From Pectobacterium zantedeschiae (lineage in GTDB: Bacteria > Pseudomonadota > Gammaproteobacteria > Enterobacterales > Enterobacteriaceae), in contig NZ_NWTM01000001.1 in the NCBI RefSeq assembly GCF_004137795.1, positions 2,886,035-2,950,034 on the forward strand: 64,000 nt of DNA. Direction: 5' to 3'. The notes below the pieces were generated by a model that was given only the letters and a program-made list of their open reading frames with translations, did no database searches and was not told the origin of the DNA. Shown here in pieces: positions 7,353 to 49,829 of the stretch; position 1 is the stretch's first letter, and every line of letters begins with the position of its first letter. Position numbers and translations under genes: made by a program.

Positions 7353-7357
7353 TTTTA

Positions 7358-9828: not shown

Positions 9829-9837
9829 AATATGCAT

Positions 9838-33022: not shown

Positions 33023-33073
33023 AAAAGAAAATGATTGATATTCGATTTTGGGATATCTATCAAGGTCACCAAA

Positions 33074-33752: not shown

Positions 33753-36713
33753 TTAGTTAAACCTATATTTTCGCTCTCTCATTTTGAATGCTTCTTTCCC
33801 ACCCTCAACGATATCAGCAATGTGCTGACGAATCCCCATAGAATTTAATATATCTTTCTCATTATTTATTTTTTCAAAAGAGTTTTCAATAGCACCATTA
33901 ATATAATCAAATCTAAAAGAACTAGAATTCCTGTCATTATTTTGCCCAATTTGATTTGCAACGATTACATTCTCTGCATCTGCATTAACAACAATGTTTG
34001 CATTGTGGGTTACAACAATGATTTGCCTTTCAAGTTTTTTATTACGTAAGTAACCAACTAAATCAGTGGTAATAGATCTATTATCAAGATTATCTTCTGG
34101 TTGGTCTATTAAAATAGGAGCCTTTGAAGTGCTCAGACCAACGATCAACATTAAAATAACAAAACTTGCTTTTCCTGTGGACATCTCACCTAATTTGTCA
34201 CTTTTATACGTAATCTCCCAATAATCAAAAAAATAATCATCTAACACATCTTTAACAACAGATTCAATATTAGCATTTCGATTAAAATAATATTTACCTG
34301 CTGTTATGTCATCAAAAAGCCTCTTAATATCACTTATAATTATTTGGTATTCGACCTCACTCGTTGATTCAATATCATCTGACAGAATTGAATATCCTTT
34401 GTATGATGATTTTCTTCCATCACTAACACTTAGTAGTGATTTTTTCATTTTTGTAAAGTTAAATTTAGCCTTTCCAACAATAGTTAAACCATCTTTTTCC
34501 AACTCATTTGTTCTAGTTTTCAATCCTTCAATTACCTTGATATACTCTTGATAACTGGATTCGTATACCTCTAGTATTTTATTTTTAGTTTCTTCTAATT
34601 TTTCTTTATTATCCTTTATTTTTTTCACTAATATATCAATGTCTGTCAATAATCTTTTATCATTAGTGATTGATTCGTTAATTTTTTCAATATCTTTCCC
34701 TACATCACGATCGCTTAAATATGGCTGAATACTACTAGTTATTTCCTTATTTTCAGCATACAAAATGCTCAGTATTTCATTAAATTTGCAATCTGACTTA
34801 AAATAACTCACACCGTCATCTTTAGTCTCTAACTGTAATAAACCCTCTACTTCATTAATTTTAACGAGCAGCATATCTACTATGGAATAGATATCTTTAT
34901 AATATTCAATTATTTTTGGCGACTTTAAATTCGATAATAAACTATCTTTTCTAAATTTTAAATTACCTGATATCTGTAGTAATTCAGAGTTAGCATTTTT
35001 TACATAAAAATAATCATCATTAACTCCACTTATATTATTTTTATTTACCTCAAGTTTACTTTGTAATAATTTAAAGCTATCAATTTCCTCCTGTGTTAAT
35101 TTAATGATTTTATTTAACTCTTCTATTTTTTTTGTATTCGCATTAATGTTTCCAGTAAGGACTTCTTTATTCGACTTACTTTTTAGCTCATCTTCTGAAG
35201 TCGTTATTTCTTTGGATATTTTAAAGTACAAATCAATCAGATTATTTCTGAATTTATCGTTTTGAGTAACATTACTAATAAAATCAACATATAATTTATT
35301 AGCATCGTTATTTTCAATAATTAAATTTCTAATTAATTTATTAAGCGATGCTCCGGTTTTATTCACTTCTGGCTCTGCAAGTTTCACTAAATAATTTTGA
35401 GGAATGTATTTTATTTCAGGAATAATAGAATTCTCACCATTATCTTCTCGGGAATTTAGTCTCTGGCTAAAACCGCCTCTGGTTGTCACTTCAAAATCCA
35501 ATCCTTTTTCAATTTCATCTAACTCATATAAGTAATTATCATTTTTATTTTTTAAAATATCTAAATCAGAAGATAGTGTTTTTGCAATAGCATACAACAA
35601 AATGGATTTACCAGAAGACTTACCACCAATAATAACATTAAGATTCGGATTAAGGTAAATTTCACGGTCAGAGAAAATGTTATCAGGAGAAATAAATCTA
35701 ACCTTTTCAATTATAAATTTCCCTTCTTTAAAATCTGGTTTTATAGGATGAATTTTAACTCTACACTCCGGTTCTAAACAGATTTGTCTCAACCCTTCAA
35801 AATTTAAATCAGCTTTAATCCACGTAAATCGAGTAAATAATTCATCTTCTGTATGCGCGTCACAACCGACAATACAAGGTTTTAACGAACCTTTATCTCT
35901 TTTTATTTCTTCTACTTCACTTCTATACACTTGTTCACTATAATTTTCATTCCCTTGAGACTTTCTCCCAAGAAAATACTTAATATCTTTAGGGTTTGAT
36001 GAGAAAATTGCATCTGATAAGTTATAAATAGACCTACGTACACCATCTAAACTCCCAGGTTCATTCTCGAATAGTTCATAGTGTCCCTGTGTTCCAGATG
36101 CACCATCGTTACTAGAATTACTAACGACTAAAATAGTGTTATTCTTTAAATTTCCAGAAATAGCTTCATTTAGTGATTTAATGTCTACGGTAAAATTATC
36201 AACCCCCTTTTTATATTGCTCCCCCTCATTTTGAATCGAAGGATCTAAGTTTTTACCATAATTTATAATTCCATGACGAGTCATTTGATATAATGATTCA
36301 TTTTTTATTCTAGTAAAAAAATCATGCTCTAGATTGGATATATAGTCTGGGTTAAATAAACAATGAATATTGATTAACTTACTCTTATTTGTTGTTGGCA
36401 ACAGTCTCAACTCTACATTTGGGAAAAGAAAAATATTCTTTATAAATTTAACCTCATCATCACTAAAAAGAGCACCACCATATTCATTTAATTTATTTTC
36501 TATATTTTCTTGATACTCAATCGCTTCCAAATATCTTTCAATTGAGAAATAATCAGTTATTCCAAGTGCAAAAATTCCGTTATCGAAAGCCTTTTTAAAA
36601 AAATAATGAAAAAAAACTTCTATTGAAGATGATTTGAATTGATCATTCTTATTTGTGCCTTTTGTATGAACATGTAAATCCCATTTTCTCCAATCAGAAC
36701 CTCGGTTAATCAT
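33753..36713 (-). CDS. PHP domain plus SMC-like ATPase (TrlF/Ppl-type, probable phage defence)
   Basis: 986 residues. N-terminal PHP phosphoesterase: H14xH16 in WDLHVHT, GITDYFS (Asp54), NIH at 116-117 and GCDAH at 283-287, all typical metal ligands. Then an ABC/SMC-type ATPase split by a long Lys/Glu/Asn-rich coiled coil (about 470-800): Walker A GGKSSGKS at 363-370, a signature-like STGKAS at 845-850, Walker B ILIDQPEDNLDN at 867-878 and the switch histidine in VVTHNANI. This architecture is that of TrlF-family proteins and of the single-gene Ppl defence system (names from memory, to be confirmed by HMM). DNA is strikingly AT-rich compared with neighbours, so it was acquired. Target molecule unknown. 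Confidence 0.8.
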   Translation of the reverse strand: MINRGSDWRKWDLHVHTKGTNKNDQFKSSSIEVFFHYFFKKAFDNGIFALGITDYFSIERYLEAIEYQENIENKLNEYGGALFSDDEVKFIKNIFLFPNVELRLLPTTNKSKLINIHCLFNPDYISNLEHDFFTRIKNESLYQMTRHGIINYGKNLDPSIQNEGEQYKKGVDNFTVDIKSLNEAISGNLKNNTILVVSNSSNDGASGTQGHYELFENEPGSLDGVRRSIYNLSDAIFSSNPKDIKYFLGRKSQGNENYSEQVYRSEVEEIKRDKGSLKPCIVGCDAHTEDELFTRFTWIKADLNFEGLRQICLEPECRVKIHPIKPDFKEGKFIIEKVRFISPDNIFSDREIYLNPNLNVIIGGKSSGKSILLYAIAKTLSSDLDILKNKNDNYLYELDEIEKGLDFEVTTRGGFSQRLNSREDNGENSIIPEIKYIPQNYLVKLAEPEVNKTGASLNKLIRNLIIENNDANKLYVDFISNVTQNDKFRNNLIDLYFKISKEITTSEDELKSKSNKEVLTGNINANTKKIEELNKIIKLTQEEIDSFKLLQSKLEVNKNNISGVNDDYFYVKNANSELLQISGNLKFRKDSLLSNLKSPKIIEYYKDIYSIVDMLLVKINEVEGLLQLETKDDGVSYFKSDCKFNEILSILYAENKEITSSIQPYLSDRDVGKDIEKINESITNDKRLLTDIDILVKKIKDNKEKLEETKNKILEVYESSYQEYIKVIEGLKTRTNELEKDGLTIVGKAKFNFTKMKKSLLSVSDGRKSSYKGYSILSDDIESTSEVEYQIIISDIKRLFDDITAGKYYFNRNANIESVVKDVLDDYFFDYWEITYKSDKLGEMSTGKASFVILMLIVGLSTSKAPILIDQPEDNLDNRSITTDLVGYLRNKKLERQIIVVTHNANIVVNADAENVIVANQIGQNNDRNSSSFRFDYINGAIENSFEKINNEKDILNSMGIRQHIADIVEGGKEAFKMRERKYRFN

Positions 36714-37541: not shown

Positions 37542-38315
37542 CTACAGCCCCAACTCCACCCCATCATAAGCAGCCTGAACGTTCTCAGGCAGCAACGTTT
37601 GCGTTTGAAGCCAGCGATCCAGTTCGTGGCCGATGTGGGTCAGGTACATCTGTTTGGGATTAAGCTGGGTGAAGATCTCCAGCGCACGGGGGACGTCATT
37701 GTGGTTACGTGGGGGCGTTGTCTGGGGAGGATGGCTGCAATCGACAACCGCATAATCGATCGTGTGTGCTGAGAGAAATTGAGCAGTTTCAAGCGGTAGC
37801 CCAACGGTGTCGGTCAGGTAGGCCAGCGTATGCGTCGGCGTCTGGATGAGGTAGCCATAGGTTAATTTGGAATGGATTAAGGGAACCGGCGTGATCCTGA
37901 TGCCGTCCAGTTCAAAGGGCTGAAAAGCTATCAGCGGTTTTTGGAAATGCAGAATCCCTGGGTGCTTGAAGAGGTCGTCGCAACCCATCTCATCTGGTGG
38001 GCCAAAGACCGGAATGGGATCGCCGTAGCCCCAGCGCAGGGGAAATAATCCCTGGACGTGGTCCATATGATAATGGGTCAATAGAATATGCCGATGCGGA
38101 TAGGGAAGTAGATAAGGCGCTAGCTCGGGTAATCCGGCATCAATCAGCACGATGCGGTCTTTTGTTGTGATTGCTGCGCAGCAGGCGCGCCGCTGTTTCC
38201 TTTCATCTTGCTGCGCCTGCTGACAAACCTCGCATTCACAGCCAAATGCGGGAACCTGCTGCGCGCCGCCCGTTCCCAGAAAGTGAAAAACGATCTCGTC
38301 ATTATCCGCTGTCAT
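37542..38315 (-). CDS. phnP: Cyclic phosphodiesterase PhnP
   Basis: Opens 5-phosphoribosyl 1,2-cyclic phosphate to ribose 1,5-bisphosphate in the C-P lyase pathway. 257 residues, metallo-beta-lactamase fold with LTHYHMDHVQG and a zinc knuckle CECEVC near the start; the C-terminal part has the conserved DCSHPP and THIGHELD. The start at 38315 has AGGAGA eight bases upstream. Last gene of the phosphonate unit, following phnN directly. Confidence 0.93.
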   Translation of the reverse strand: MTADNDEIVFHFLGTGGAQQVPAFGCECEVCQQAQQDERKQRRACCAAITTKDRIVLIDAGLPELAPYLLPYPHRHILLTHYHMDHVQGLFPLRWGYGDPIPVFGPPDEMGCDDLFKHPGILHFQKPLIAFQPFELDGIRITPVPLIHSKLTYGYLIQTPTHTLAYLTDTVGLPLETAQFLSAHTIDYAVVDCSHPPQTTPPRNHNDVPRALEIFTQLNPKQMYLTHIGHELDRWLQTQTLLPENVQAAYDGVELGL

Positions 38316-38355
38316 CGGCTTTCTCCTGCTCTCCGGTATGCCCGCCATTCAGCTA

Positions 38356-38922
38356 TTATTCGCGGTGCGCCGCGCAAGCCTTATCGAACGGCAGCAGCGA
38401 CTGAAAAACAGATAAAGTGTGTTGCAGATCGCCGTCGTTATTCAATAACACACAGTCGCTTTGTAAGCGGCTTTGCTCTTCCTCAGCACGCTGCAAACGT
38501 GTGGCAATCTGCTGTTCACTTTCTCGTCCTCTGGCACGTAGCCGCTGCCGTAGTGCCGATTCAGATACGGTCAAACATATCGGAAACAACGTATTGCCGT
38601 AGCGTTCACGCGCCTGAGTCAGGTAAGCCCGCGAACCGTTAACGATGACGTTGCTTCCCCGCTGTAACCAGTAATCAATCTCAATCCCGATACCGTAATG
38701 GCACTGATGCGCCTGCCAATTAAGTGCGAAGATGCCAAGCTGCTGGCGGAACGCAAACTCTTCGGGGGTAAGCGCTATGTGGTTCTCTCCTTGAATTTCT
38801 GCGGGACGGGTAATGTACCGATGCGCCACCAGCAGGCGTGGTAGCGGCAATTGACGGATCGCCCGAAGCAGGCTGTCTTTGCCTGCACCGGAAGGGCCAA
38901 TAAGGTAGATGAGTCTCGTCAT
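38356..38922 (-). CDS. phnN: Ribose 1,5-bisphosphokinase PhnN
   Basis: Phosphorylates ribose 1,5-bisphosphate to PRPP, the salvage end of the pathway. 188 residues, P-loop kinase with LIGPSGAGKDSLLRAI at the N-terminus and the guanylate-kinase-like stretch RYITRP. The start at 38922 is two bases after the phnM stop. PhnP, PhnN and PhnM together turn the C-P lyase product into PRPP. Confidence 0.93.
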   Translation of the reverse strand: MTRLIYLIGPSGAGKDSLLRAIRQLPLPRLLVAHRYITRPAEIQGENHIALTPEEFAFRQQLGIFALNWQAHQCHYGIGIEIDYWLQRGSNVIVNGSRAYLTQARERYGNTLFPICLTVSESALRQRLRARGRESEQQIATRLQRAEEEQSRLQSDCVLLNNDGDLQHTLSVFQSLLPFDKACAAHRE

Positions 38923-38924
38923 GA

Positions 38925-40061
38925 TCAGAATACCCGAACGCCCTGACGCCACACTCGCATCAGCTTCATTTGCGGCGCTCGCCGTTTTACGAGCAACAGG
39001 TCGGCTCGCCGTCCCTCTTCAATACAGCCACGATCGTCAAATTTCAGCACCTGAGCGGGGTTACTGCTAACCAGAGCTATGGCTCGCGGCAGATCGTAAT
39101 CATTGCGCTCATCCTCTGCGATCATGAATGCCGCCTCCAGCAAACTGGCCGGATAATAGTCCGAAGACAGAATGTGAAGCACGCCAAGCGTAGCCAGATG
39201 ATGCGCCGACACATTCCCGGAATGAGAACCGCCGCAGATGACATTCGGTGCCCCCATCAGCACGTTCATTCCGACGCGGTGTGCCTGCTGCGCGGCGATC
39301 TCGGTGGTGGGAAATTCAGCGATGGCGACACGATGCTGGTGGGACTCGGTGATATGTTCAGGCGTCGCATCGTCATGGCTGGCCAGCGTGATACCTTTTT
39401 CGTGACAAAGGCGAACGATAGCCTCACGGTTCGGTTGCGACCAACGACGTGAACCGGCAAGCTGTTCCTCCTCAAACGCAGCCATTTGTTCATCATTCAG
39501 GTGATACTTACCTTTGTAATACTGATGATATTTCTCCTGGGAAGAAAATTGCCGCTGCCCCGGAGAGTGATCCATTAACGATGCAAGCGCGACCAGTGGA
39601 ATATCCACTAGTTGTTCAAAGAGGGGAAATGTATCCTGATGCGGCAGCTCACAGCGGAGGTGCAAATGGTGGTCAGCCCGATTGGTGCCATGTTGTTGGC
39701 TGTGCAATATCGCATCCGTCATGCGCCGCAGGTTCTCAAGCCGATGCCCACCATCGCGCACATCCCCGACCGCGACCGCATCCAAAACAGTGGTGATCCC
39801 GCTGGATATAATCAACGCGTCGTGATTGCGCATCGCCGCTTCAGAAGGCCAATTAACACCGGGACGCGGTGTAAAACACTTATCAAGATTATCCGTATGT
39901 AGCTCGACAAGCCCCGGCAGGAGCCAGGCCTGTTCACCATCCAACGCACCGGGATGGCGGCTGGGCCTATCGCTGATATGGTGAATTACGCCGTTGCGCA
40001 CTTCCAATGAGCCATGAATGATTTCCTCTGAGAACACCATATTGACGTTATTAATGATCAT
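38925..40061 (-). CDS. phnM: Triphosphoribosyl phosphonate diphosphatase PhnM
   Basis: Removes pyrophosphate from the 5-triphosphoribosyl phosphonate intermediate before C-P cleavage. 378 residues, same length as E. coli; amidohydrolase fold with the metal motif [10 protein letters not shown], the later histidines in [11 protein letters not shown] and [14 protein letters not shown], and [12 protein letters not shown]. Its start overlaps phnL by 11 bases. Confidence 0.95.
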
Positions 40062-40767
40062 TTACGTTCTCCTGAGTGCGGGAAGTCATTGCCATCGAGT
40101 AAAGGCGATCGGCGACGTGTTGGCGAACTTCATCATCATGAAAGATGCCGACGACAGCACACCCCTTACTTTTTGCATCATCGATGAGCTGTGTGACGGC
40201 GAGTCGATTTTTGGTATCCAGCGAGGCCGTCGGTTCGTCTAATAGCAGAATCGGGTAATCACCAATAAATCCGCGAGCAATATTGATGCGCTGCTGCTCA
40301 CCGCCTGAAAAGGTGGCGGGCGCGAGCGACCAGAGCCGCTCGGGGACGTTCAGGTGCGTCAGCAATTCACCGGCGCGAATCTCGCTTTCCTGACGCGACA
40401 TGCCGCGTTCCAGTAAAGGCTGGATGACCACGTTCAATGTGCTAATACGCGGAATGACTCGCAAAAACTGGCTTACCCAGCCTACCGTTTCACGGCGAAT
40501 TTCCAGTACATGTCGTGCGTCTGCGTTGACGATATCGACCCAGCGTTCGCGATGGCGAACCCAGATATGGCCGCCATCGGGTCGATAGTTGCCGTATAGA
40601 GAGCGCAGTAGCGTGGATTTTCCTGTCCCTGAATGCCCATGAAGCGCAACGCATTCACCGCACTTCACGGACAGACTGACATCGTGGAAAACGGGCAGTC
40701 GCGTACCCTGCTGATTATATAACACGAACGTTTTATCAACGTTCTCGATGCGTAATTGAGTATCCAT
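40051..40767 (-). CDS. phnL: C-P lyase ABC-type subunit PhnL
   Basis: 238-residue ABC ATPase-like component bound to the C-P lyase core together with PhnK. Walker [10 protein letters not shown], signature FSGGEQQR, Walker [13 protein letters not shown] and a switch-type histidine (GIFHDDEV). There is no transport partner here, as in other C-P lyase loci. Start taken at the ATG 40767 with AAGGA upstream; a TTG directly before it is also in frame. Confidence 0.94.
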
Positions 40768-40788
40768 CAAGCGTCCTTTTGGCTGGAT

Positions 40789-41577
40789 TTACAAAATGGA
40801 AGAAACAAGTAGCTGAGTATAGGGGTGGCTCGGATCGTCAAGCACCCTGTCCGTTAATCCCTGCTCGACAACTCGCCCACGCTGCATCACCAGCAGACGA
40901 TGTGATAGCAGGCGAGCGACGCCGAGATCGTGTGTCACAATAACGACAGAAAGCTGCATCTCCACAACCAGCGTCCTGAGCAGATCGAGCAACCGAGCCT
41001 GTACCGACACGTCTAATCCGCCAGTGGGTTCATCCATAAATATCAGCCGCGGTGCCGTCACCAGATTGCGCGCGATCTGAAGGCGTTGCTGCATCCCGCC
41101 GGAAAATGTGGTGGGAAGATCGTCCAGACGGTTTTCGGGCAGCTCAACATTTTCCATCCACTGTGCCGCCTTGCTGCGAATATCACCGTAGTGCCGATTA
41201 CCGATAGCCATAAGCCGTTCGCCAATATTTCCACCGGCAGACACTGTGGGGCGTAATCCTGCCAGCGGGTGCTGCCAGACGATTCCCCACTCGGTTCGCA
41301 CTAGTGCTCGACGCTGCCGTTCGCTGATGTCATAAATCGAGAGCGCCTGCTGCTCGGCGTTGCGATAGATAACCTCACCTTCCTGCGGTGCCAAACGTGC
41401 GGAGATCGCATTCAGCAGCGTCGTTTTCCCTGAACCCGATTCGCCAACAATCCCTAAAACCTCCCCCGGCCACAGTTGAAACGACACGTCGCGGAAGCCT
41501 TTTTCCGGCGCATATAAATGTGTGAGGTGTCGCACATCAAGCAGAGGACTGTCGGATACGTGATGTTCTGTCGTCAT
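40789..41577 (-). CDS. phnK: C-P lyase ABC-type subunit PhnK
   Basis: 262-residue ABC ATPase-like protein that docks on PhnJ in the C-P lyase complex. Walker A GESGSGKTT, signature TFSGGMQQR, Walker B IFMDEPTGGLDVSVQ and VVIVTHDLGVARL. Start ATG overlaps the phnJ stop (ATGA) with GGAGGAG just upstream, showing coupled translation. Confidence 0.95.
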   Translation of the reverse strand: MTTEHHVSDSPLLDVRHLTHLYAPEKGFRDVSFQLWPGEVLGIVGESGSGKTTLLNAISARLAPQEGEVIYRNAEQQALSIYDISERQRRALVRTEWGIVWQHPLAGLRPTVSAGGNIGERLMAIGNRHYGDIRSKAAQWMENVELPENRLDDLPTTFSGGMQQRLQIARNLVTAPRLIFMDEPTGGLDVSVQARLLDLLRTLVVEMQLSVVIVTHDLGVARLLSHRLLVMQRGRVVEQGLTDRVLDDPSHPYTQLLVSSIL

Positions 41578-42479
41578 GACGTTTCTCCTCCCTGACTCTG
41601 GCGCTGCTGACAATAGTCGGTGTCGGAGCAGACAAACATACGTGTACCGTCATCATCCATCACGACTTCATCAAGGAAGCTATCGCGCGCGCCACACAGC
41701 TCACACGGCTTGTCCCACTGCTGTATTCTGAAGGGGTGATCGTCAAAATCGAGGCTTTTCACCACGGTATACGGAGGAACGGCATAGACCCGTTTTTCAC
41801 GTCCGGCACCAAAGAGTTGCAGCGCGGGCATCATATCCATCTTTGGGTTGTCAAATTTCGGGATGGGCGAAGGATCCATGACATAGCGATGATTCACCTT
41901 TACCGGGTAGGCGTAAGTCGTGGCAATGTGTCCAAAGCGTGCAATGTCTTCATAGAGTTTCACCTGCATGACACCGTATTCTTCTAGCGCATGCATTTTG
42001 CACGTCTCGGTTTCACGTGGTTCAATAAAGCGCAGAGGTTCGGGGATCGGCACCTGAAAAACCAGGATCTGATCCTCCTTAAGCGGCGTTTCAGGAATGC
42101 GGTGTCGCGTTTGAATCAGCGTCGCTTCGCTTGTTTTCTCCGTGGTCGGCACGTTTGTCACCTTGCGGAAAAAGGCGCGGATCGATACCGCATTGGTCGT
42201 ATCATCGGAACCCTGATCGATCACTTTAAGCGTATCGTCCGGCCCGATAATACTGGCCGTGATTTGAATACCGCCAGTCCCCCAGCCATAGGGCATTGGC
42301 ATTTCCCGGCTACCAAACGGCACCTGATGGCCGGGAATGGCAATCGCTTTCAGAATCGCACGCCGTATCATTCCCTTCGTGCTTTCATCCAGATAGCCAT
42401 AGTTGTATGCCGTTTCTGAATCGTTGTATGCCGTTTCTGGCTGGCTGTCTTTCTGTCGTGAGATCGTTGTCTGACCCAT
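41574..42479 (-). CDS. phnJ: C-P lyase radical SAM subunit PhnJ
   Basis: Cleaves the carbon-phosphorus bond by a radical SAM/iron-sulfur mechanism. 301 residues, 20 longer than E. coli PhnJ (281). The four cysteines Cys259, Cys262, Cys284 and Cys290 and the radical-bearing Gly50 sit exactly 18 residues after their E. coli counterparts, so the catalytic set is intact. The extra length is N-terminal and contains a duplicated ETAYN unit from a 21-base tandem repeat. Start overlaps the phnI stop by one base. Confidence 0.96.
   Translation of the reverse strand: MGQTTISRQKDSQPETAYNDSETAYNYGYLDESTKGMIRRAILKAIAIPGHQVPFGSREMPMPYGWGTGGIQITASIIGPDDTLKVIDQGSDDTTNAVSIRAFFRKVTNVPTTEKTSEATLIQTRHRIPETPLKEDQILVFQVPIPEPLRFIEPRETETCKMHALEEYGVMQVKLYEDIARFGHIATTYAYPVKVNHRYVMDPSPIPKFDNPKMDMMPALQLFGAGREKRVYAVPPYTVVKSLDFDDHPFRIQQWDKPCELCGARDSFLDEVVMDDDGTRMFVCSDTDYCQQRQSQGGETS
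42402..42439. repeat. 21-base tandem duplication inside phnJ
   Basis: GTTGTATGCCGTTTCTG occurs at 42402-42418 and again at 42423-42439, a 21-base period that keeps the frame and yields two successive ETAYN peptides at residues 15-26 of PhnJ, just before the conserved protein begins. Confidence 0.9.
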
Positions 42480-43582
42480 TACGCTTTACTCCTTGGCACA
42501 GAAGCGAGGTATTCCTCACGTAGTCGTTTTAATAGCTCCAGCTCTGACTGGAAATCGACGTAATGCGGAAGCTTCAGATGCGAGACAAAACCTGCCGCCT
42601 CGACATTGTCAGCATGAGAAAGAACGAATTCCTCATCCTGAGCCGGACCGCGAATTTCCTCTTGATAATCGGCGGCCTGAAGCGCGCGATCGGCTAATGC
42701 CACCGTGATAGCCTTACGCTCCGAACGGCCAAATGCCAGTCCGTAACCACGGGTAAAATGCGGCGCGTCGTTGGTAGGTTTAACAAAACCGTTCACGGTT
42801 TCGCATTCGGTCAGTAAGATCTCGCCGATATCAATGGCAAAGCCGACCTCTTCAGCGACGATACTGACGGTGATGTATCCCGTGCGGATCTCGCCGACAA
42901 ACGGATGGTTACGACCATAACCGCGTTGGGTTGAATACCCGAGCGACAAGAGAAACCCCTCATCGCCGCGGAACAATTGCTGAAGGCGCGCCGCACGTGT
43001 GCCGGGGTAACTCGGTGGATCCATCGTGATATCTGGCGGATCGCTGTCGTCGCTGATACTCCGTTCAGGCACGAAGTGCTGCTGGGAAAGGAACTGAAAC
43101 GCATGAGGAGTGTGTTCACGAATTCCTTCATCCTCATCAACTGCGTCAGACTGTGGTACGACAGGATCCTCTCCGTCAGCCAATAGAGAGAAATCCAGCA
43201 AGCGATGGGTATAGTCATAGGTCGGGCCCAATAGCTGCCCACCCGGTAAATCCTTGAAAATGGCCGAAACACGGCGTTCAAGACGCATATCAGGCGTATT
43301 AAGCGGCTGACTGATTCCCCAGCGTGGCAGCGTGGAACGGTAGGCTCGTAAAAGAAAGATACTTTCTACCAGATCGCCACTGGCCTGTTTGATGGCCAGC
43401 GCAGCGAGTTGGCGGTCGTAAATATTACCTTCGGTCATCACGCGATCGACGGCTAAATTAAGCTGCTGCTCTATTTGTGAACAGTCTAATTCTGGTATAT
43501 CCGTACACCCACGGCGGCGACAGGATTGTAGCTGGTGAGCAGCCTCAATGGCCTTTTCCCCACCTTTGACGGCAACATACAT
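42479..43582 (-). CDS. phnI: C-P lyase core subunit PhnI
   Basis: Nucleosidase-type subunit that with PhnGHL couples the phosphonate to the ribose of ATP. 367 residues, typical PhnI with the N-terminal MYVAVKGGEKAIEAAH, YDRQLAALAIKQASGD and the LLDFSLLADGE region. TAATG overlap with phnH fixes the start at 43582; residues in the longer upstream frame overlap phnH and are not conserved. Confidence 0.95.
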   Translation of the reverse strand: MYVAVKGGEKAIEAAHQLQSCRRRGCTDIPELDCSQIEQQLNLAVDRVMTEGNIYDRQLAALAIKQASGDLVESIFLLRAYRSTLPRWGISQPLNTPDMRLERRVSAIFKDLPGGQLLGPTYDYTHRLLDFSLLADGEDPVVPQSDAVDEDEGIREHTPHAFQFLSQQHFVPERSISDDSDPPDITMDPPSYPGTRAARLQQLFRGDEGFLLSLGYSTQRGYGRNHPFVGEIRTGYITVSIVAEEVGFAIDIGEILLTECETVNGFVKPTNDAPHFTRGYGLAFGRSERKAITVALADRALQAADYQEEIRGPAQDEEFVLSHADNVEAAGFVSHLKLPHYVDFQSELELLKRLREEYLASVPRSKA

Positions 43583-44163
43583 TAGCATTCCTCCACGTGG
43601 GTACTTCTGGGGATTGCAAAGAGCTTTTTCCCAGACGTAAAGAGAAAATCCAACCCTGTAGGGAAGGCATGAGGGCGGTTGCACAGGTAGTGCCTGATAC
43701 TACCGGGCAGACGGGGAGAAATAATGCGATGTGTCTTGATGCCCGGCCCAGTCAGCTTTAGACAAGGTCCGTCGTGCATACCTTCCACTTCTAAAATAAC
43801 GGTGGTGGATTTTTCCGGTTCTATTTCGCTGCCGCAGGAGAGCGCCATCAGGTCATAAGAAAAACGGTTTCCACTTAGCAGCACAAAGTAAGCCTCTTCG
43901 AACATCGTGGTAATCGGCACGTTCGTATGCAGGCAAAGTGTGCGTAACAGCAGTGGATTACCGATCTTGGGATCTATAAACAGCGGTGTCGTGTGACTGG
44001 TCAGCGTGAGCAGCGTGGCGGCCGTTGCAGACGACATAGATTCCAGGCCAGAGACATTCGGAACCGTGACCAGAGAACCCGGCTCGCTCATGGCCTTCAC
44101 GATTTTGCGAAAGCAGAGTTGTGTACCAAATACGGGATGGGCGAAGCCCGTCATCGTTGTCAT
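43582..44163 (-). CDS. phnH: C-P lyase core subunit PhnH
   Basis: 193-residue structural subunit of the C-P lyase core (PLP-transferase-like fold without the cofactor). Family stretches: FAHPVFGTQLCFRKIVKAMSEPG near the N-terminus, SLVTVPN, TLTSHTTPLFID, and PGSIRHYLCNRPHAFPTGLDFLF. Six bases after phnG, one-base overlap with phnI. Confidence 0.94.
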   Translation of the reverse strand: MTTMTGFAHPVFGTQLCFRKIVKAMSEPGSLVTVPNVSGLESMSSATAATLLTLTSHTTPLFIDPKIGNPLLLRTLCLHTNVPITTMFEEAYFVLLSGNRFSYDLMALSCGSEIEPEKSTTVILEVEGMHDGPCLKLTGPGIKTHRIISPRLPGSIRHYLCNRPHAFPTGLDFLFTSGKKLFAIPRSTHVEEC

Positions 44164-44169
44164 GACAAA

Positions 44170-44613
44170 TCATTCTCCCCTGACCAAAGTAAAGAAATTC
44201 ACTCGACTGGCAGCCACTTCACTCTGTTGCTGTTCCCGATGAGCAAGCTGTTGGTCTGCTAACGGTGTGATGATTCGCTCCCATATTTCATGGAAATAGG
44301 CTCGGGTTTGCAGAAGTGCATCGATCCAGGCACAGAGCTCGGCATGCGGCTTGTTTCTGCCTGCGATATAGCTGTAGCCGCACGTTCCGTCCTCCAGTTG
44401 CACCGCAGCACGGGTCACCGTCATATCCCCCACAATAAAACGCGGACCATCAACCTCCATTCTTCCCTGTAGTTGGATCAAACCAATCTGCGTTGGGCGT
44501 AATAGCTGGTAGTGCGCAGGGAAGTGCAGCGTATTCCAGTGTTCTTCCAATTCGGCAGGGTCGCTGTGAGCGAGAATGGACATCCAGCGTTGTCGCTGTG
44601 TTAACTCAGACAT
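44170..44613 (-). CDS. phnG: C-P lyase core subunit PhnG
   Basis: 147-residue core subunit; RQRWMSILAHSDPAEL and VGDMTVTRAAVQLEDGTCGYSYIAGRNKPHAELCAWIDALLQ are typical. Its ATG directly abuts the stop of the upstream dehydrogenase gene, so translation of the degradative and biosynthetic parts is physically linked. No phnF or phnCDE gene lies upstream, unlike the standard enterobacterial layout. Confidence 0.94.
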   Translation of the reverse strand: MSELTQRQRWMSILAHSDPAELEEHWNTLHFPAHYQLLRPTQIGLIQLQGRMEVDGPRFIVGDMTVTRAAVQLEDGTCGYSYIAGRNKPHAELCAWIDALLQTRAYFHEIWERIITPLADQQLAHREQQQSEVAASRVNFFTLVRGE

Positions 44614-45507
44614 CTAGTACCTCCCCGTCGGCAAGGTACGTGAGAGATAAGTAAAACAGGCGGTTTGATCCTGAGGATCGGCAGAAAGATCGGCCGTGCT
44701 TTGATACAGCTGGCGCGCCGTATCGAAGAATTTACTGTGGATCGCCGAGCGCTGGAAAAGCGAGTTAGCAAGATCGAGATCTTTCAAACGGATAGATAAA
44801 GGAACTGACACGGTTTCACGCGGGTTCAGATAGCGATCCAGCATGACTTCCATATAGGTCGAACGTCCGCGTCCCAGCGTCAACGCGTTTGCCAGCACAT
44901 CAGGGGCGATGCCGTGAGCTCCCGCCAGCAATAGCGCTTCCGCAGCCACCAGCAGATGCACCGCCTCACAATAATTATTAATCACCTTCATGGTCTGTGC
45001 ACCGTGGTTACTCTCCATCAGTACATAGTGATCTGACAGGCTGCTGATGACAGCATTCACCACGCTGGCAAAATCGTCAGCATACGGCCCTACCCAGGCA
45101 GCAAGTCGCCCCTGTCGTGCGCCCTCTGGCCCACCTGAGACTGGGCACTCCACATAATGCGCACCGTGCTGATGAAAAAAAGTTTCCATCCAGCGGCTCT
45201 CTTCAGGCCCTATCGTGCTGATATTGAGAAACAAAGGACGATAGAGAGTCAGCTTGTGTATCACTTCTTCCGACTGAAAAACGTCACGTATCGCCTCCGC
45301 ATCCTTCAGACAGATAAGCACAATTTGTTTTTCCTGCGTAAACAGCTGGTGCAGTTCGGGGACGGCTTGAGCACCTTCGGCGGCAACCTCGTTCGCTTTA
45401 TGGTAAGTGCGGTTGAACACGCTGAGCGAGAAATGACGCTGTAATAGTCTCAGCGAGATAGCTTTTCCTAATACACCAACGCCAACTAAAGAAATAGAAT
45501 GAGTCAT
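44614..45507 (-). CDS. Beta-hydroxyacid dehydrogenase-family oxidoreductase in the phosphonate operon
   Basis: 297 residues of the 3-hydroxyisobutyrate/tartronate-semialdehyde reductase family: NAD(P)-binding GVGVLG at 9-14, substrate motif VECPVSGGPEGA at about 119-130, catalytic Lys174 and Asn178 in TMKVINNY. Set between phosphonopyruvate decarboxylase and phnG. Phosphonoacetaldehyde is a phosphonate analogue of malonate semialdehyde, a normal product type of this family, so reduction to 2-hydroxyethylphosphonate is the likely reaction, though phosphonopyruvate or its derivatives are not excluded. Start at 45507 is chosen because the Rossmann fold begins there. Confidence 0.75.
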   Translation of the reverse strand: MTHSISLVGVGVLGKAISLRLLQRHFSLSVFNRTYHKANEVAAEGAQAVPELHQLFTQEKQIVLICLKDAEAIRDVFQSEEVIHKLTLYRPLFLNISTIGPEESRWMETFFHQHGAHYVECPVSGGPEGARQGRLAAWVGPYADDFASVVNAVISSLSDHYVLMESNHGAQTMKVINNYCEAVHLLVAAEALLLAGAHGIAPDVLANALTLGRGRSTYMEVMLDRYLNPRETVSVPLSIRLKDLDLANSLFQRSAIHSKFFDTARQLYQSTADLSADPQDQTACFTYLSRTLPTGRY

Positions 45508-45556
45508 ATCGGCAATCCTTGTCGCTAAGGGGTGGCAATACTCAGGGTATTGCCGC

Positions 45557-46714
45557 TCATAAAGAGGCCTTAGGGGTTGTATTAAGAAACTGCATAAACG
45601 CATCGCGGTTTTCAGCAGGAGACGTCGCAGGCCGCCCCAGATCGCTGCGATGACCTACGCGGCATTGCACCTCGATAAATTGGCTGCTTTGTGCCCGCAA
45701 AGCCTGTTGCAGCGCAGCCTGCAAGGCTTCTTCCGTCTCGGCATAGTAGGTTTTTCCATAGCCGCTAGCGGCAGCGATGGGTGCCAGCGGTAAGCGGGAC
45801 GCCGCCGTGGGCTGCCCTCCCACAGAGTCATGCGCACCGTTGTTGATGACGATGTGTATCAGGTTGCTTGCCTGAGCAGTGTTTGTCAGCCCACCCATGT
45901 GCATCAATAGCGCCCCATCCCCATCCAGACAGACAACTTTCCGCTGCGGCTGCGCGTCACACAAACCCAGAGCAATCTGGCTGGCAAGGCCCATACCACC
46001 GACTGTCAGAAAATCCCGCTGATGTCCTTCACCGCGCTGTTCACGTAGTTCATAGAGCTCACGGGATAACATGCCCGTGGTACTCACCATGGGGATCGTG
46101 GATGGCAGCGCTTTCAGGCATGCGGCGACGATAGCTTCTCGCCGCATCAAGGCTGTCTCAGCGGCAGGGTTAGCAGGTGCTGCTGGCGAGGAAAAGGTGT
46201 TTTTTCTCACCACCAGTGCAACAGGACGATGTTCATCATGCGCACGCTGAAGCAAAGCCTGAATATCATCCCACGGGGGTGGGTTATGGCTATCCAGCAC
46301 AATATGAGGAACATCAAGCACATTAAGTTGAGGTAAGGTGACTCGCCCCTGCATAACATGCTGCGGCTCATCGTGCTGCTGCTTACCACTATCATCAACC
46401 TCGCCACGCCAGCCGATAATCAGTAACAGCGGAATACCATAAACATCCGGCGTAGCCAGAGAACAGAGGGGGTTGATCGCATTGCCTAATCCCGAGTTTT
46501 GCATATAGACTACGGGCAGTGTTCGAGTAGACAGATAATGCCCAATCGCCATACCCACCGCACAACCTTCATTACTCGCGATACGGTGCGCAAGCCCACT
46601 GTGATTACTTTCAATCGCCAGACAAAATGCCTTTAATAATGAGTCAGGGACGCCACTGAAAAAATGTACGCCGCGTTGAGTAAGAAATTCGATAAACTTA
46701 TCAGGGTCAATCAC
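45557..46714 (-). CDS. Phosphonopyruvate decarboxylase
   Basis: Thiamine diphosphate enzyme that decarboxylates phosphonopyruvate to phosphonoacetaldehyde, pulling the unfavourable PEP mutase step forward. 385 residues, usual length; N-terminal FFSGVPDSLLK, the NEGCAVGMAIGHYL and QNSGLGNAINPL motifs, and the cofactor motif GDGALLMHMGGLTNTA ending in VINN. Start is the GTG at 46714 with GGGGAGG upstream. 49 bases before the dehydrogenase gene and 229 after the mutase gene. Confidence 0.9.
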   Translation of the reverse strand: MIDPDKFIEFLTQRGVHFFSGVPDSLLKAFCLAIESNHSGLAHRIASNEGCAVGMAIGHYLSTRTLPVVYMQNSGLGNAINPLCSLATPDVYGIPLLLIIGWRGEVDDSGKQQHDEPQHVMQGRVTLPQLNVLDVPHIVLDSHNPPPWDDIQALLQRAHDEHRPVALVVRKNTFSSPAAPANPAAETALMRREAIVAACLKALPSTIPMVSTTGMLSRELYELREQRGEGHQRDFLTVGGMGLASQIALGLCDAQPQRKVVCLDGDGALLMHMGGLTNTAQASNLIHIVINNGAHDSVGGQPTAASRLPLAPIAAASGYGKTYYAETEEALQAALQQALRAQSSQFIEVQCRVGHRSDLGRPATSPAENRDAFMQFLNTTPKASL

Positions 46715-46943
46715 AATAAACCTCCCCTTCGCATCATGCTGTATTTAACTGCGATGATGACGTTCTAATTTTTCATTACGTGATAAAAGCCACAAGGGGC
46801 AATATAATTATTTAACCAAAAACAGACAGTTTCTTAAAAGAATAACGAAATTCATGCAAATGGCTTACAATAAAAAAATAATAAGCCTCTAGCGTCAAAT
46901 AATAACGCTATAAAATAATCATACTGACACCCAATATATTCTG

Positions 46944-47876
46944 TTAGCGTGTACCAGGTATAAGATCCAGAATATCTTTTATCGACATACATTTATCCTC
47001 AACTTCCAGCGTTCGACCATGCTTGAGGATTTCTGGCAAAATTGATTTCATTGCCGGATAAGCCGCACGTAACATATGGTTCGCATAAATAACGATATTG
47101 AACCCGCCATCAATAAGTTGATCGAAAGTAATATCGTTAAAACTGGTAGGGACACAAACCAAAGGTAAATGTGGGTAATGATCGCGGAATTGTTTGGCGA
47201 ACGTTAAAATCTCAGAAGGGTTTTTATGCCGACTGTGGATCATAATTCCATCGGCACCGGCATCCGCATAATGCAGGGCACGATTTATCGCATCTTCCAT
47301 ACCGACATCCAGAATCAGGCTCTCAATACGCGCTATCAGCATAAACTCGGGCGTCAGCTGTGCTTTTTTAGCAGTCGTAATTTTTTCGCAAAAGTCAGCC
47401 ACAGAAGCTTGCGTTTGCTTTACATCGTTACCAAATAAAGAGTTCTTCTTCAGGCCAGTTTTATCTTCGATAATCATGGCAGAAATGCCCAGATTTTCAG
47501 CAGCTCGAATACGGTGTGCCAAATGTTCAGTTTGTCCGCCAGTATCGCCATCAAAAATTAATGGTCGGGTGGTAACATCAAATATTTCCGTAATCGCATG
47601 GAAACGATGGCTGATATCGACCAATTCCGTATCGGGTTTTCCCCGCAAGGTAGAATCAGTGAGTGAGCTAGACCAAAATGCATCAAATTGATAATGAATA
47701 TCGCCATCTTCATAAGCGGCTTGTTCTATTAATAAGGCAGAAAGTGGACTGTGAGCCTCCATCACACGAATGCCTTTTTGCTGCTGTAATAATTCGCGGA
47801 GCGCACTGCGGCGTGAGCCAGGTGTACACCCCTTATATGAATCTATTGGGGTATGATTAGGTAAAATGATAGACAT
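46944..47876 (-). CDS. pepM: Phosphoenolpyruvate phosphomutase
   Basis: Forms the C-P bond by isomerising PEP to phosphonopyruvate, the entry step of nearly all phosphonate biosynthesis. 310 residues of the isocitrate lyase/PEP mutase superfamily; the diagnostic EDKTGLKKNS (residues 137-146, pattern EDKxxxKxNS) distinguishes it from hydrolases and lyases, and FDGDTGG carries the magnesium-binding Asp. AGGAGA precedes the ATG. First gene of the unit; a large dyad symmetry lies about 70-115 bases upstream. Confidence 0.93.
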   Translation of the reverse strand: MSIILPNHTPIDSYKGCTPGSRRSALRELLQQQKGIRVMEAHSPLSALLIEQAAYEDGDIHYQFDAFWSSSLTDSTLRGKPDTELVDISHRFHAITEIFDVTTRPLIFDGDTGGQTEHLAHRIRAAENLGISAMIIEDKTGLKKNSLFGNDVKQTQASVADFCEKITTAKKAQLTPEFMLIARIESLILDVGMEDAINRALHYADAGADGIMIHSRHKNPSEILTFAKQFRDHYPHLPLVCVPTSFNDITFDQLIDGGFNIVIYANHMLRAAYPAMKSILPEILKHGRTLEVEDKCMSIKDILDLIPGTR

Positions 47877-47945
47877 GGTTATCTCCTATGTACCATAGAG
47901 TTGGGGGTATACTTTCCCTAGTAAACCAAGCGTGACAATCAAGAG

Positions 47946-47990
47946 ACCCTGCAACGTTATATTTATTTAAATTAAATATACCAACAGGGT
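47946..47990. promoter_or_regulatory. Imperfect 45-base dyad upstream of pepM
   Basis: ACCCTG and CAGGGT at the ends, TATATTT and AAATATA within, centred near 47968, so about 70-115 bases before the pepM start. It could be an operator or an attenuating hairpin. Confidence 0.45.
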
Positions 47991-48447
47991 GATTCTATTC
48001 CTTGAAAACAACACTTCAATAGGGTTAAAAATTTTTTGTTTATTTTCTAATTTCACCTACCTTATTGAAATAGAATCGATTTAAACGAGAGGAAAACGCC
48101 AAAAACAGGATTTCAGTTTAAAAAAAATGATTTATTCATGTTAAAAAACTAAAAAAATAGTCACTTTTGGTTTTTTACTTCAAAACATGTTCTATGGATA
48201 GGAGGTAGAGAAAGGAAATACTATTCTTATATATATTCATCATTGAATATATAATTCCACAGTGAATGATTAGCATGTGAAGACTAAGATATACTTATAA
48301 ATTCTCATGGTTTTATGACAATCAGATTTCTGCTTCACGGTAACGGTATGGCTGGATAGCATGACGGTTTAAAAACTTGGCGATTTGTTTATCCAGAAAA
48401 GACATTCAGACGGCGACCTGAACCGGGCAACCCACTTTTCTCCTCGT

Positions 48448-48735
48448 AATAAACCATTTTAAACAGTTATTTATATTTATGTGGAAATCGATATCTCTTC
48501 ACCAATTTATTGGTATAACTATGATTATTATCAAATAGATACAACACATTATGCCCCCAAAAAACTGCCTGCAAATGCAGGTCTGAGCTGCCGCACATCC
48601 TGAGAGCTATCACGCCCATCATCTAACCGGGCAGTACTGGGAAAATACCGCAGCATGGATTCGTACCTCAAATGGCGGGCAGTCTGTAGAAGACGATCGC
48701 TGGATGGGCGCTGAGCTGGCACACTGGATGGCACA
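48448..48735 (+). pseudogene. Truncated duplicate of the upstream region and front of the DUF4034 gene
   Basis: 48448-48570 resembles 49642-49762 (shared CCATTTTAAA, TTGGTATAACTAT, TATCAAATAGATACAACAC). Then 48588-48735 resembles 50047-50195 inside the DUF4034 gene (GAGAGCTATCACGCCCATCA, AGACGATCGCTGGATGGGCG). The roughly 285 bases between, including the start codon, are missing, and the copy stops after the GAGCTGGCAC match. A segmental duplication followed by internal deletion. Confidence 0.8.
48514..48532. promoter_or_regulatory. Fur-box-like site, duplicated copy
   Basis: TATAACTATGATTATTATC agrees with the 19-base Fur consensus at 14 positions; it is the decayed partner of the site at 49701. 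Confidence 0.3.
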
Positions 48736-48911
48736 ACCTTTTTTTATAAGTTGCTCTAATGTAAGGTATATAGGGTGAATTGATAGAGCATTTGCAAATG
48801 GTTTCAGCACTCCCCTATATTGCAGAACGAAAGTACTGAGGATTAATTTTTCAGTTGGCACAAAAATGATTTTGCCAATCCACAATGCACTTTACTTATC
48901 ATCCAGGACAT

Positions 48912-49514
48912 ATGGAAATAAACCTTTTTGGCTTTATACCCGCACTACTCCCCGTTGCGCTCTCTCCAGGGGCGAGCTATACTCTCGCCATGAACAGCGC
49001 CATTTCAGGCGGACGACGCGGACTGATCAAGACTCTCACCGGAACGGCCCTTGGTATATATACCCATGCAACACTTATCGGCCTCGGCATAACAGCCATA
49101 CTCGTTGCCTCTCCTACGATATTTAACATTCTGAAGATTGCAGGGACAATTTACCTGTTCTGGTTAGGCGTCCAACTCATCCGCAGCGGTATGAAAGCGA
49201 AAAGTATGGAGCTTAATGCAAACGTCATTACCATTACGGTGAAAGATGCATGGCTAGCAAATGTGCTTAACCCAAAAGCTGTTATGTTTTATCTAACGGT
49301 GGTCTCACAGTTTGCTGGCAGTAACGGGGATGTTGCTGATTATCTGGCTTTGGCTTCCGTGCATATTGTAATTATGAGTATATGGCTTATCGCTGTCAGC
49401 AATGCATTAGTCTTTTCTGCCAAAAAAGCTAATCCTTTAACACTAAAAAAATACGTCAATATAGGTGGAGGAATGATGCTCATCTTTTTCTCTTCAAGCA
49501 GTTTCATTCACTAA
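48912..49514 (+). CDS. LysE/RhtB-family amino-acid exporter
   Basis: 200 residues, about six hydrophobic segments, with the family N-terminus PALLPVALSPGASYTLAMNSAISGGRRGLIKTLTGTALG. Such proteins export amino acids or small amino compounds. The start at 48912 (AGGA five bases upstream) gives the normal family start; an ATG at 48885 adds nine residues. It sits alone between the two copies of a duplicated segment, so the substrate cannot be inferred from neighbours; a link to the phosphonate unit is possible only by proximity. Confidence 0.85.
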   Translation: MEINLFGFIPALLPVALSPGASYTLAMNSAISGGRRGLIKTLTGTALGIYTHATLIGLGITAILVASPTIFNILKIAGTIYLFWLGVQLIRSGMKAKSMELNANVITITVKDAWLANVLNPKAVMFYLTVVSQFAGSNGDVADYLALASVHIVIMSIWLIAVSNALVFSAKKANPLTLKKYVNIGGGMMLIFFSSSSFIH

Positions 49515-49829
49515 ATAACGTTGCCTATTACCGCTCCACTTTAGCCAGACTACAATGATTGCCGGAGAATTTACTGTCAGTCTCTCAGCAATCTAAACTC
49601 GCCCCCCCCCAATTCATCTCCTTTCTTGTCCACAGCCACACCATTTTAAATAGTTATTTACATTTATGTAAAAAACGATGTCTACTCACCCAATTGTTGG
49701 TATAACTATAATCATTATCAAATAGATACAACACGATTACTCCCCCAAAAACCTGCCTGCGCATGCTGCTGATAAAGCACGATGTTGTCGGCACTATGAC
49801 TACTCAACAACAGCCTAAGAATTTACTCT
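49515..49829. promoter_or_regulatory. Upstream region of the DUF4034 gene
   Basis: Contains a run of nine C at 49602-49610, the intact copy of the duplicated promoter segment and a good Fur-like box. No gene. Confidence 0.5.
49701..49719. promoter_or_regulatory. Fur-box-like site before the DUF4034 gene
   Basis: TATAACTATAATCATTATC matches the 19-base Fur consensus (GATAATGATAATCATTATC) at 16 positions, about 110 bases ahead of the start. Confidence 0.5.

What the first reader, a model, noticed from the sequence alone, without database searches (positions are those of the whole stretch)
37542..47876. Make-and-break phosphonate operon: PEP mutase pathway fused to C-P lyase
pepM, phosphonopyruvate decarboxylase and a dehydrogenase are followed, stop codon touching start codon, by phnGHIJKLMNP. 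These are normally separate systems: one builds C-P bonds, the other breaks them to obtain phosphate. No phnCDE importer or phnF repressor is present, so the lyase's substrate would come from inside. Possibilities are recycling of an own phosphonate store or modified polymer, a shunt from PEP to PRPP and ethanol, or production of a ribosylated phosphonate by incomplete C-P lyase action.
Basis: partly seen in the sequence, partly recalled or inferred. Interest (0 to 1): 0.78.

Follow-up and report, generated by a model that had tools for sequence, protein, structure and literature searches.

The report
Operon that makes and breaks phosphonates
In soft-rot and oak-decline bacteria, the genes that build carbon-phosphorus compounds and the genes that tear them apart travel together as one conserved twelve-gene unit, which is surprising because a cell usually has one kind or the other.

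Summary
pepM, ppd and a reductase are followed, with no gap, by phnGHIJKLMNP (37542-47876, minus strand; a Pectobacterium). The same 12 genes occur in 12 of 25 Pectobacterium genomes, 5 of 5 Lonsdalea (one cut by a contig end) and Erwinia psidii. Their lyases form one clade, apart from the importer-linked lyase that some Pectobacterium also have. Genes are under purifying selection in Pectobacterium; the catalytic residues checked are intact. PhnD was found in 27 of 27 examined genomes with an ordinary C-P lyase and in 0 of 13 with the pepM-linked lyase alone, so the lyase is most simply fed from inside. The reductase's nearest solved relative is 5u5g (Psf3 by recall), pointing to 2-hydroxyethylphosphonate. 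A 2024 paper shows that pepM makes extracellular phosphonates in P. atrosepticum, induced by plant extract, pectin and quorum sensing; its main text does not mention the lyase. Best reading: a plant-induced phosphonate producer with a built-in breakdown valve. The lyase's role is inferred, not shown; a ribosylated product, a phosphorus store, or feeding by an unlinked PhnSTU2-like importer (present, under cut-offs) are not excluded.

The parts
46944..47876 (-). pepM, phosphoenolpyruvate mutase (310 aa)
   Evidence: TIGR02320 432 bits, cut-off 320; EDKTGLKKNS loop in 16 of 16 linked loci examined that hold pepM; dN/dS 0.03
46715..46943 (-). 229-nt gap between pepM and ppd, the only long gap in the unit; possible internal promoter, no terminator-like site on the coding strand
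45557..46714 (-). ppd, phosphonopyruvate decarboxylase (385 aa)
   Evidence: TIGR03297 524 bits, cut-off 312
44614..45603 (-). dh, beta-hydroxyacid-dehydrogenase-fold reductase, predicted phosphonoacetaldehyde reductase (listed as longest ORF; homologues suggest a start near 45507)
   Evidence: best solved relative 5u5g_A E 1e-34, next 7e-23; same top hit for the E. psidii copy; RGRSxYM(D/E)V in 17 of 17
44170..44613 (-). phnG, directly abutting dh
   Evidence: TIGR03293 165 bits; gap 0
43582..44163 (-). phnH
   Evidence: TIGR03292 177 bits
42479..43684 (-). phnI (longest ORF; likely start near 43582)
   Evidence: Pfam PhnI 515 bits; His328/His333 kept in 17 of 17 linked loci
41574..42479 (-). 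phnJ, radical-SAM C-P lyase subunit
   Evidence: E 2e-160 to E. coli PhnJ 7z15; Gly32, His108 and four Cys kept in 17 of 17
40789..41613 (-). phnK, ABC ATPase of the lyase
   Evidence: TIGR02323 384 bits
40051..40770 (-). phnL, ABC ATPase of the lyase
   Evidence: TIGR02324 341 bits
38925..40061 (-). phnM, triphosphate diphosphatase
   Evidence: NF011981 697 bits
38356..38952 (-). phnN, ribose 1,5-bisphosphokinase
   Evidence: Pfam Guanylate_kin and AAA_18; position; matched in 17 of 17 linked loci
37542..38348 (-). phnP, cyclic-phosphate phosphodiesterase
   Evidence: E 4e-85 to E. coli PhnP 3g1p
47877..48050 (-). conserved upstream region and leader of pepM
   Evidence: alignment of 12 Pectobacterium copies, last 21 nt invariant; leader not unusually structured

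Best explanation
A self-contained phosphonate production unit with a built-in breakdown arm. PepM turns PEP into phosphonopyruvate, Ppd makes phosphonoacetaldehyde, and the Psf3-like dehydrogenase reduces it, most likely to 2-hydroxyethylphosphonate (HEP). Part of the product, or a derivative, leaves the cell (shown for P. atrosepticum). The intracellular remainder is the substrate of the dedicated PhnGHIJKLMNP lyase, which ribosylates it, cuts the C-P bond and returns the phosphorus as PRPP. The lyase thus limits the internal pool and recovers its phosphorus. Shown here: gene content, junctions, conservation, selection, intact catalytic residues, no canonical importer. Shown by others: pepM-dependent extracellular phosphonate and its induction. 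Inferred: HEP as product, lyase co-expression, and the valve/recycling role.
For: 12 genes kept together in 18 genomes of three genera, one of them cut by a contig end; dh-phnG abutting in 12 of 12 Pectobacterium copies; one lyase clade, SH-aLRT 100; PhnD 0 of 13 vs 27 of 27; PhnN and PhnP retained and mean dN/dS 0.03-0.14 for the 12 genes in Pectobacterium; lyase residues intact and no clade-fixed switch in PhnJ; dh nearest to 5u5g; P. atrosepticum pepM deletion abolishes 31P signals at 15-25 ppm (PMC11546328, text parts 1-3 of 8 read).
Against: I have no expression or metabolite data for the lyase genes. Published structures (2-diethoxyphosphorylethanamine, phenylphosphonic acid) are not HEP. 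Making and breaking on one transcript looks futile without a switch, and none was found. A weak promoter-like match in the pepM-ppd gap could let the halves be expressed apart. Own genome holds a PhnSTU2-like transporter (342, 409 and 480 bits; all under cut-offs). Some copies have split genes: ppd in L031 and L038, phnK in L038, dh in L012, phnK and phnL in L010; L038's genome also has split phnM, phnD and phnE2 elsewhere, so its assembly may be poor.
Confidence: 0.45

Rival explanations
1. Phosphorus store: the unit banks phosphorus as a stable phosphonate when phosphate is plentiful and the lyase releases it in starvation.
For: Both halves in one unit; full set for a PRPP-yielding pathway. 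The storage idea for phosphonates is discussed in PMC8931226 (passages).
Against: Product is extracellular and induced by pectin, plant extract and quorum sensing (PMC11546328). No PHO box above shuffles on the coding strand upstream of pepM or ppd in 16 loci (the scan is weak: in the ordinary Pectobacterium phn operon it passes 0.05 in only 2 of 7).
Confidence: 0.15
2. Biosynthetic lyase: PhnGHI(L) and PhnM add a phosphoribosyl group to HEP and a ribosylated phosphonate is the real product.
For: Lyase placed downstream of a biosynthetic module; no canonical importer. The expected 5-phosphoribosyl-HEP has [M+H]+ 339.02, nominally one of the two main ions in PMC11546328.
Against: PhnJ, PhnN and PhnP intact and constrained. 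The reported 374 negative ion and losses of 45, 63 and 81 do not fit that compound (373 expected as chloride adduct), so the mass match is probably accident.
Confidence: 0.15
3. Ordinary scavenging: the lyase degrades external phosphonates imported by an unlinked transporter, and pepM-ppd-dh are separate passengers.
For: PhnSTU2-like genes in the own genome.
Against: That transporter is under all three cut-offs, lies about 1.2 Mb away, and by eye has no phosphonate gene in its 12-kb surroundings. PhnD absent in 13 of 13 pepM-only-lyase genomes. Linkage kept through a change of gene order and with different neighbours.
Confidence: 0.12
4. Linkage without coupling: the two halves spread together but work at different times, pepM from its own promoter and ppd-dh-phn from another.
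For: 229-nt gap with promoter-like match; pepM has lower G+C (0.43 against 0.51-0.56).
Against: ppd and dh, useless without PepM, are on the lyase side of the gap and dh abuts phnG.
Confidence: 0.08
5. Metabolic shunt from PEP to PRPP, CO2 and ethanol.
For: Genes for every step are present.
Against: It spends ATP and a reduced cofactor and gives nothing that fermentation does not give (inference).
Confidence: 0.03

Closest known systems
E. coli phnCDEFGHIJKLMNOP (C-P lyase operon; gene list recalled)
   Same: PhnGHIJKLMNP orthologues in the same order, catalytic residues kept
   Different: No phnD, phnE or phnF; pepM-ppd-dh sit where phnF usually is; no PHO box found
Second Pectobacterium lyase operon phnF-GHIJKLM-CDE1E2 (7 of 25 genomes)
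   Same: PhnG-M homologues, 42-80% identical
   Different: Has regulator and importer, no phnN or phnP in the stretches read, separate clade
PEP mutase phosphonate pathways (fosfomycin, pantaphos, AEP, HEP)
   Same: PepM entry step, in many also Ppd
   Different: Reductase is nearest to a Psf3-type enzyme, not the iron alcohol dehydrogenase PhpC (recalled); no constant tailoring genes; C-P lyase follows
P. atrosepticum fom1-fom2-ECA0489 (PMC11546328)
   Same: Same first three genes; pepM deletion abolishes extracellular phosphonate
   Different: Main text has 0 occurrences of phn, C-P lyase or carbon-phosphorus lyase; orthology with the window is inferred from gene order
Genomes with both traits (SAR11 HTCC7217, two roseobacters, Burkholderiaceae; PMC8931226, passages)
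   Same: Producer and consumer in one cell
   Different: The passages I read describe co-occurrence in a genome, not one operon

Membership tests
C-P lyase pathway (PhnGHIJKLM core) | All seven core genes | tested here: met
C-P lyase pathway (PhnGHIJKLM core) | PhnJ Gly32, Cys241/244/266/272, His108; PhnI His328/His333 | tested here: met
   17 of 17 linked loci examined; residues from PMC9947105 passages
C-P lyase pathway (PhnGHIJKLM core) | Cleaves phosphonates in vivo | not testable with these tools
   needs phnJ deletion
Phosphonate-scavenging phn operon | PhnCDE importer in the operon or genome | tested here: not met
   no PhnD in own genome, no PhnE over cut-off; PhnD in 0 of 13 genomes
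Phosphonate-scavenging phn operon | Some other phosphonate importer in the genome | tested here: inconclusive
   PhnS2/T2/U2-like genes under all three cut-offs
Phosphonate-scavenging phn operon | GntR regulator PhnF beside phnG | tested here: not met
   absent in the stretches of 17 of 17 linked loci; present in 26 of 27 others
Phosphonate-scavenging phn operon | PHO box promoter | tested here: inconclusive
   none above shuffles in 16 loci, but the scan is weak
PEP mutase phosphonate biosynthesis | True PEP mutase, not hydrolase or lyase | tested here: met
   TIGR02320 over cut-off; phosphonopyruvate hydrolase model 150 bits against its cut-off 374
PEP mutase phosphonate biosynthesis | Ppd pulls the reaction forward | tested here: met
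   gene present, TIGR03297 over cut-off; activity not tested
PEP mutase phosphonate biosynthesis | Phosphonate made in vivo | not testable with these tools
   shown for P. atrosepticum pepM by others (PMC11546328)
Psf3-type phosphonate reductase | Nearest to 5u5g and sharing its RGRSxYM(D/E)V stretch | tested here: met
   that 5u5g is Psf3 is recalled
Psf3-type phosphonate reductase | Reduces phosphonoacetaldehyde | not testable with these tools
   enzyme assay needed

The most novel reading that the evidence does not exclude
The C-P lyase has been recruited into biosynthesis: in these plant pathogens it turns self-made HEP into ribosylated phosphonates that are PRPP analogues, cutting them only under some conditions, so that one operon makes, activates and destroys its own bioactive compound.
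Probability: 0.15. Interest if true: 0.9.

Novelty: new variant of a known kind. Interest (0 to 1): 0.66.

Why it matters
Making and breaking C-P bonds are reported as nearly exclusive traits (under 1% of genomes, PMC8931226, passages), and what phosphonates are for is largely open. Here selection has kept both in one operon across three genera, in a genus with a published pepM mutant, complementation and 31P NMR assay. One gene removal (phnJ) would tell what a producer wants with a C-P lyase. It also means that the one study of Pectobacterium phosphonates that I found leaves nine co-located genes out of account.

Tried and rejected
Rejected: annotation error or chance neighbourhood (17 further genomes, one of them in a changed gene order). 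Rejected: the lyase is a recent copy of the genus's scavenging lyase (separate clade). Rejected: decayed or neofunctionalised lyase (no clade-fixed switch in PhnJ, one each in PhnI, PhnL, PhnM). Rejected as diagnostic: absence of an adjacent importer alone, since 8 of the 20 ordinary Enterobacterales lyase loci I fetched (of 54) also lack phnD in the stretch; all 8 have PhnD elsewhere.

Led nowhere: Rfam (only the tRNA; chance hits); fold of the leader (weaker than shuffles); KdgR-like sites (a one-mismatch site near -141 in 5 of 12 Pectobacterium copies and the same site at -306 in L038; consensus recalled, unproven); plasmid and E. coli searches (no match; pepM in 31 plasmid records, at most 55% identical, neighbours not read).

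Limits: the survey for independent fusions is partial. In 398 Pseudomonadota genomes there are 26 unlinked pepM places, of which I read 16; with 4 from the order survey, 2 from Erwinia and G012 that makes 23, and 0 of 23 had phnG-J in stretches of 13.6-19.9 kb. Whether E. psidii has a second PhnJ was not tested. Literature: my first search missed the key paper; one search found it. Listings showed 20 papers of 139, 47 and 126. Li and Horsman 2022 and Yu 2013 could not be read, so an earlier mention of this gene order there is not excluded. Mattinen 2008 and Gorshkov 2018, cited for induction of phosphonate genes, were seen only as references. Three other P. atrosepticum papers have 0 occurrences of my phosphonate terms.
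Full report
WHAT IS THERE. The window belongs to a Pectobacterium genome of 5.06 Mb in 13 contigs. On the minus strand lie, in order of transcription, pepM, ppd, a beta-hydroxyacid-dehydrogenase-fold reductase (dh), and phnG, H, I, J, K, L, M, N, P. From ppd to phnP the longest ORFs overlap, abut or are up to 18 nt apart; several of these starts are probably too early by homology (dh near 45507, which would leave about 50 nt after ppd; phnI near 43582). The stop of dh touches the start of phnG. pepM is 229 nt upstream of ppd. No terminator-like site lies on the coding strand in that gap; a weak promoter-like match starts at the end of pepM (over the whole scanned region terminator-like matches are at the number expected from shuffles and promoter-like ones 1.3 sd above). 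So nothing found separates the building half from the breaking half at their junction, but pepM could have its own transcript.

CONSERVATION. A scan of one genome per species with the reductase found the linkage in Pectobacterium, Lonsdalea and Erwinia psidii. In 25 Pectobacterium genomes, PEP mutase of this type is in 12, every one about 5.3 kb from a PhnJ, and all 12 have the 12 genes. A thirteenth genome (G012) has a different pepM and no PhnJ. All 5 Lonsdalea genomes searched have one PhnJ, and all five sit in this unit (in L010 pepM and ppd lie beyond the contig end). In Erwinia, 3 of 37 genomes have PEP mutase and only E. psidii has the linked unit; there the order is dh-pepM-ppd-phnG. 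That makes 18 genomes. In 394 Enterobacterales genomes PhnJ is in 56 and PEP mutase in 7; they are linked in 2, both Pectobacterium. Of 23 other pepM places read, 0 carry phnG-J. The dh-phnG gap is 0 nt in 12 of 12 Pectobacterium copies; in Lonsdalea it is 3 nt in 4 of 5 and a 7-nt overlap in L012.

NEIGHBOURS. By eye: in the window and in L036 a tRNA-Phe gene follows within about 5 kb of phnP and downstream genes vary among Pectobacterium copies; the Lonsdalea copy L008 lies between a rapZ-like and a TldD/PmbA-like gene; the E. psidii copy follows an oligopeptide-type ABC transporter and a MetE-like gene. Among the genes I compared, none beyond the twelve is constant, so I take the twelve as the unit.

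ONE ORIGIN. A tree of concatenated PhnG-M (44 rows, 1920 columns, quick method) puts the 17 pepM-linked lyases on one side of a branch with SH-aLRT 100. The second Pectobacterium lyase (7 genomes) groups with importer-linked lyases of other genera. L080 was found later and is not in the tree or in the residue counts.

NO CANONICAL IMPORT. The second Pectobacterium lyase is phnF-GHIJKLM-CDE1E2 without phnN or phnP in the stretch. phnF is in 26 of 27 unlinked loci and in 0 of 17 linked ones (stretches only; the 20 non-Pectobacterium unlinked loci are my choice from 54). In Pectobacterium, PhnD occurs in exactly the 7 of 25 genomes with that second lyase. Of the 20 others, 12 have a phnD match in the stretch (tblastn) and the 8 that do not all have PhnD elsewhere in the genome, while 4 Lonsdalea, E. 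psidii and two Pectobacterium met a second time have none. Together 27 of 27 against 0 of 13 (Fisher p 8e-11; related genomes are not independent; two methods were mixed; L080's genome was not tested). The caveat: the own genome holds a PhnS2-PhnT2-PhnU2-like transporter, best matched by those models but under each curated cut-off (342 of 393, 409 of 458, 480 of 593 bits). Whether other Pectobacterium share it was not tested.

THE ENZYMES LOOK ACTIVE. PhnJ Gly32, His108 and the four cysteines, and PhnI His328 and His333 (named in PMC9947105, passages), are kept in 17 of 17 linked loci. PhnJ has no clade-fixed switch; PhnI, PhnL and PhnM have one each. Mean pairwise dN/dS over 12 Pectobacterium copies (66 pairs) is 0.03-0.14 for every gene, phnJ 0.05, phnN 0.11, phnP 0.14. 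Against this, a few copies have split genes: ppd in L031 and L038, phnK in L038, dh in L012, phnK and phnL in L010. Stops seen in L029, L037 and L011 lie at the very ends of the alignments.

THE PRODUCT. dh is nearest among solved structures to 5u5g (E 1e-34; next 7e-23), as is the diverged E. psidii copy (2e-25; next 1e-21). I recall 5u5g as Psf3, the 2-oxopropylphosphonate reductase of the Pseudomonas fosfomycin pathway; the tool calls it 6-phosphogluconate dehydrogenase. PMC11546328 independently calls ECA0489 homologous to 2-oxopropylphosphonate reductase. Phosphonoacetaldehyde has its carbonyl at the same place, so HEP is the expected product (inference). The FNRT/YNRT motif suggests NADPH (recalled rule).

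WHAT IS ALREADY KNOWN. PMC11546328 (text parts 1-3 of 8, figure legends, part of the references and term searches) deleted pepM (fom1, ECA0487) of P. atrosepticum SCRI1043: extracellular 31P signals at 15-25 ppm vanish and return on complementation; fom1 expression with plant extract is 800 times that in LB and 150 times that in minimal medium, rises 12-fold with pectin, and is 40-fold lower without ExpI. The mutant is more virulent on salicylate-primed plants, has more pectate lyase activity and less H2O2 resistance (the last not restored by complementation). The authors assign 2-diethoxyphosphorylethanamine and phenylphosphonic acid and say only the root of the pathway is predicted. The terms phn, C-P lyase, phosphonate degrad and carbon-phosphorus lyase have 0 occurrences in the main text. 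That the window's operon is the orthologue is inferred from the gene order pepM-ppd-reductase. PMC8931226 (passages) reports that under 1% of genomes both produce and consume phosphonates. PMC9381506 (passages) says that C-P lyase operons in its examples include phnCDE and a GntR regulator; PMC10574752 (passages) notes lyase clusters without phnF in Trichodesmium and two archaea, so lack of phnF alone is not new. Ten literature searches listed no paper that I recognised as describing this operon as a unit; two likely inventories were not readable.

HOW IT PROBABLY WORKS. PEP to phosphonopyruvate to phosphonoacetaldehyde to HEP; part exported or modified; the internal rest ribosylated from ATP, trimmed by PhnM, cut by PhnJ, and returned through PhnP and PhnN as PRPP. 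The complete lyase, with the salvage enzymes PhnN and PhnP that the sister operon lacks, favours breakdown and recovery over an arrested pathway. Induction by pectin and quorum sensing rather than (as far as known) phosphate favours a turnover valve on a plant-phase product over a phosphorus bank. The lack of a known switch against a futile cycle is the main weakness. I put this reading at 0.45.

VERDICT. A real, conserved and, as far as I could search, undescribed arrangement of two known systems: new variant of a known kind, interest 0.66.

Noticed in passing
L039 (G012:C1:3850000-3869000), about 3664-9889: Another Pectobacterium species carries what looks like a fosfomycin-type cluster of the Pseudomonas (Psf) kind: pepM, HMGL-like synthase, Psf3-like reductase with the same RGRSxYMEV stretch, a cupin protein, amino-acid-kinase-like and thymidylate-kinase-like genes and a PHP protein; no Ppd match. 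The Psf label is recalled.
   Followed up: partly
window 33753-36713 (-) with 33035-33328 (+): A 986-aa PHP/SMC-like ATPase between tRNA-Phe and the operon matches the anti-phage protein Ppl (E 4e-24), next to an HTH protein; a possible defence gene at a tRNA site.
   Followed up: partly
window 48885-49514 and repeats 48453-48565 / 49640-49752: A LysE-family exporter gene next to pepM, not matched in the stretches of the other linked Pectobacterium loci; it lies between two copies of an 82% identical 113-nt direct repeat, the first beside a fragment of the neighbouring tpr gene.
   Followed up: no
L031, L033, L034 downstream of phnP: In 3 of the 10 other Pectobacterium copies with readable downstream sequence the unit is followed by what look, by eye, like exopolysaccharide genes (WcaJ-like and Wza-like).
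   Followed up: no
window 46944-47876: pepM has clearly lower G+C (0.43, third position 0.38) than the eleven other genes (0.51-0.56).
   Followed up: no
Candidatus Stammera capleta plasmids (e.g. CP144779): 17 of the 31 plasmid records with a PEP mutase homologue are 8.7-9.7 kb plasmids of this insect symbiont; the records carry no annotation and the product is unknown to me.
   Followed up: no
G000:C3:1712691-1716519 (L083:4692-8520): PhnS2T2U2-like ABC transporter in the own genome, under all three cut-offs, beside a regulator that looks DeoR-like by eye.
   Followed up: partly
L084:3883-8367 (G000:C3): A second PhnS2-like binding protein (236 bits, under cut-off) followed, by eye, by a permease and an ATPase gene.
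   Followed up: no
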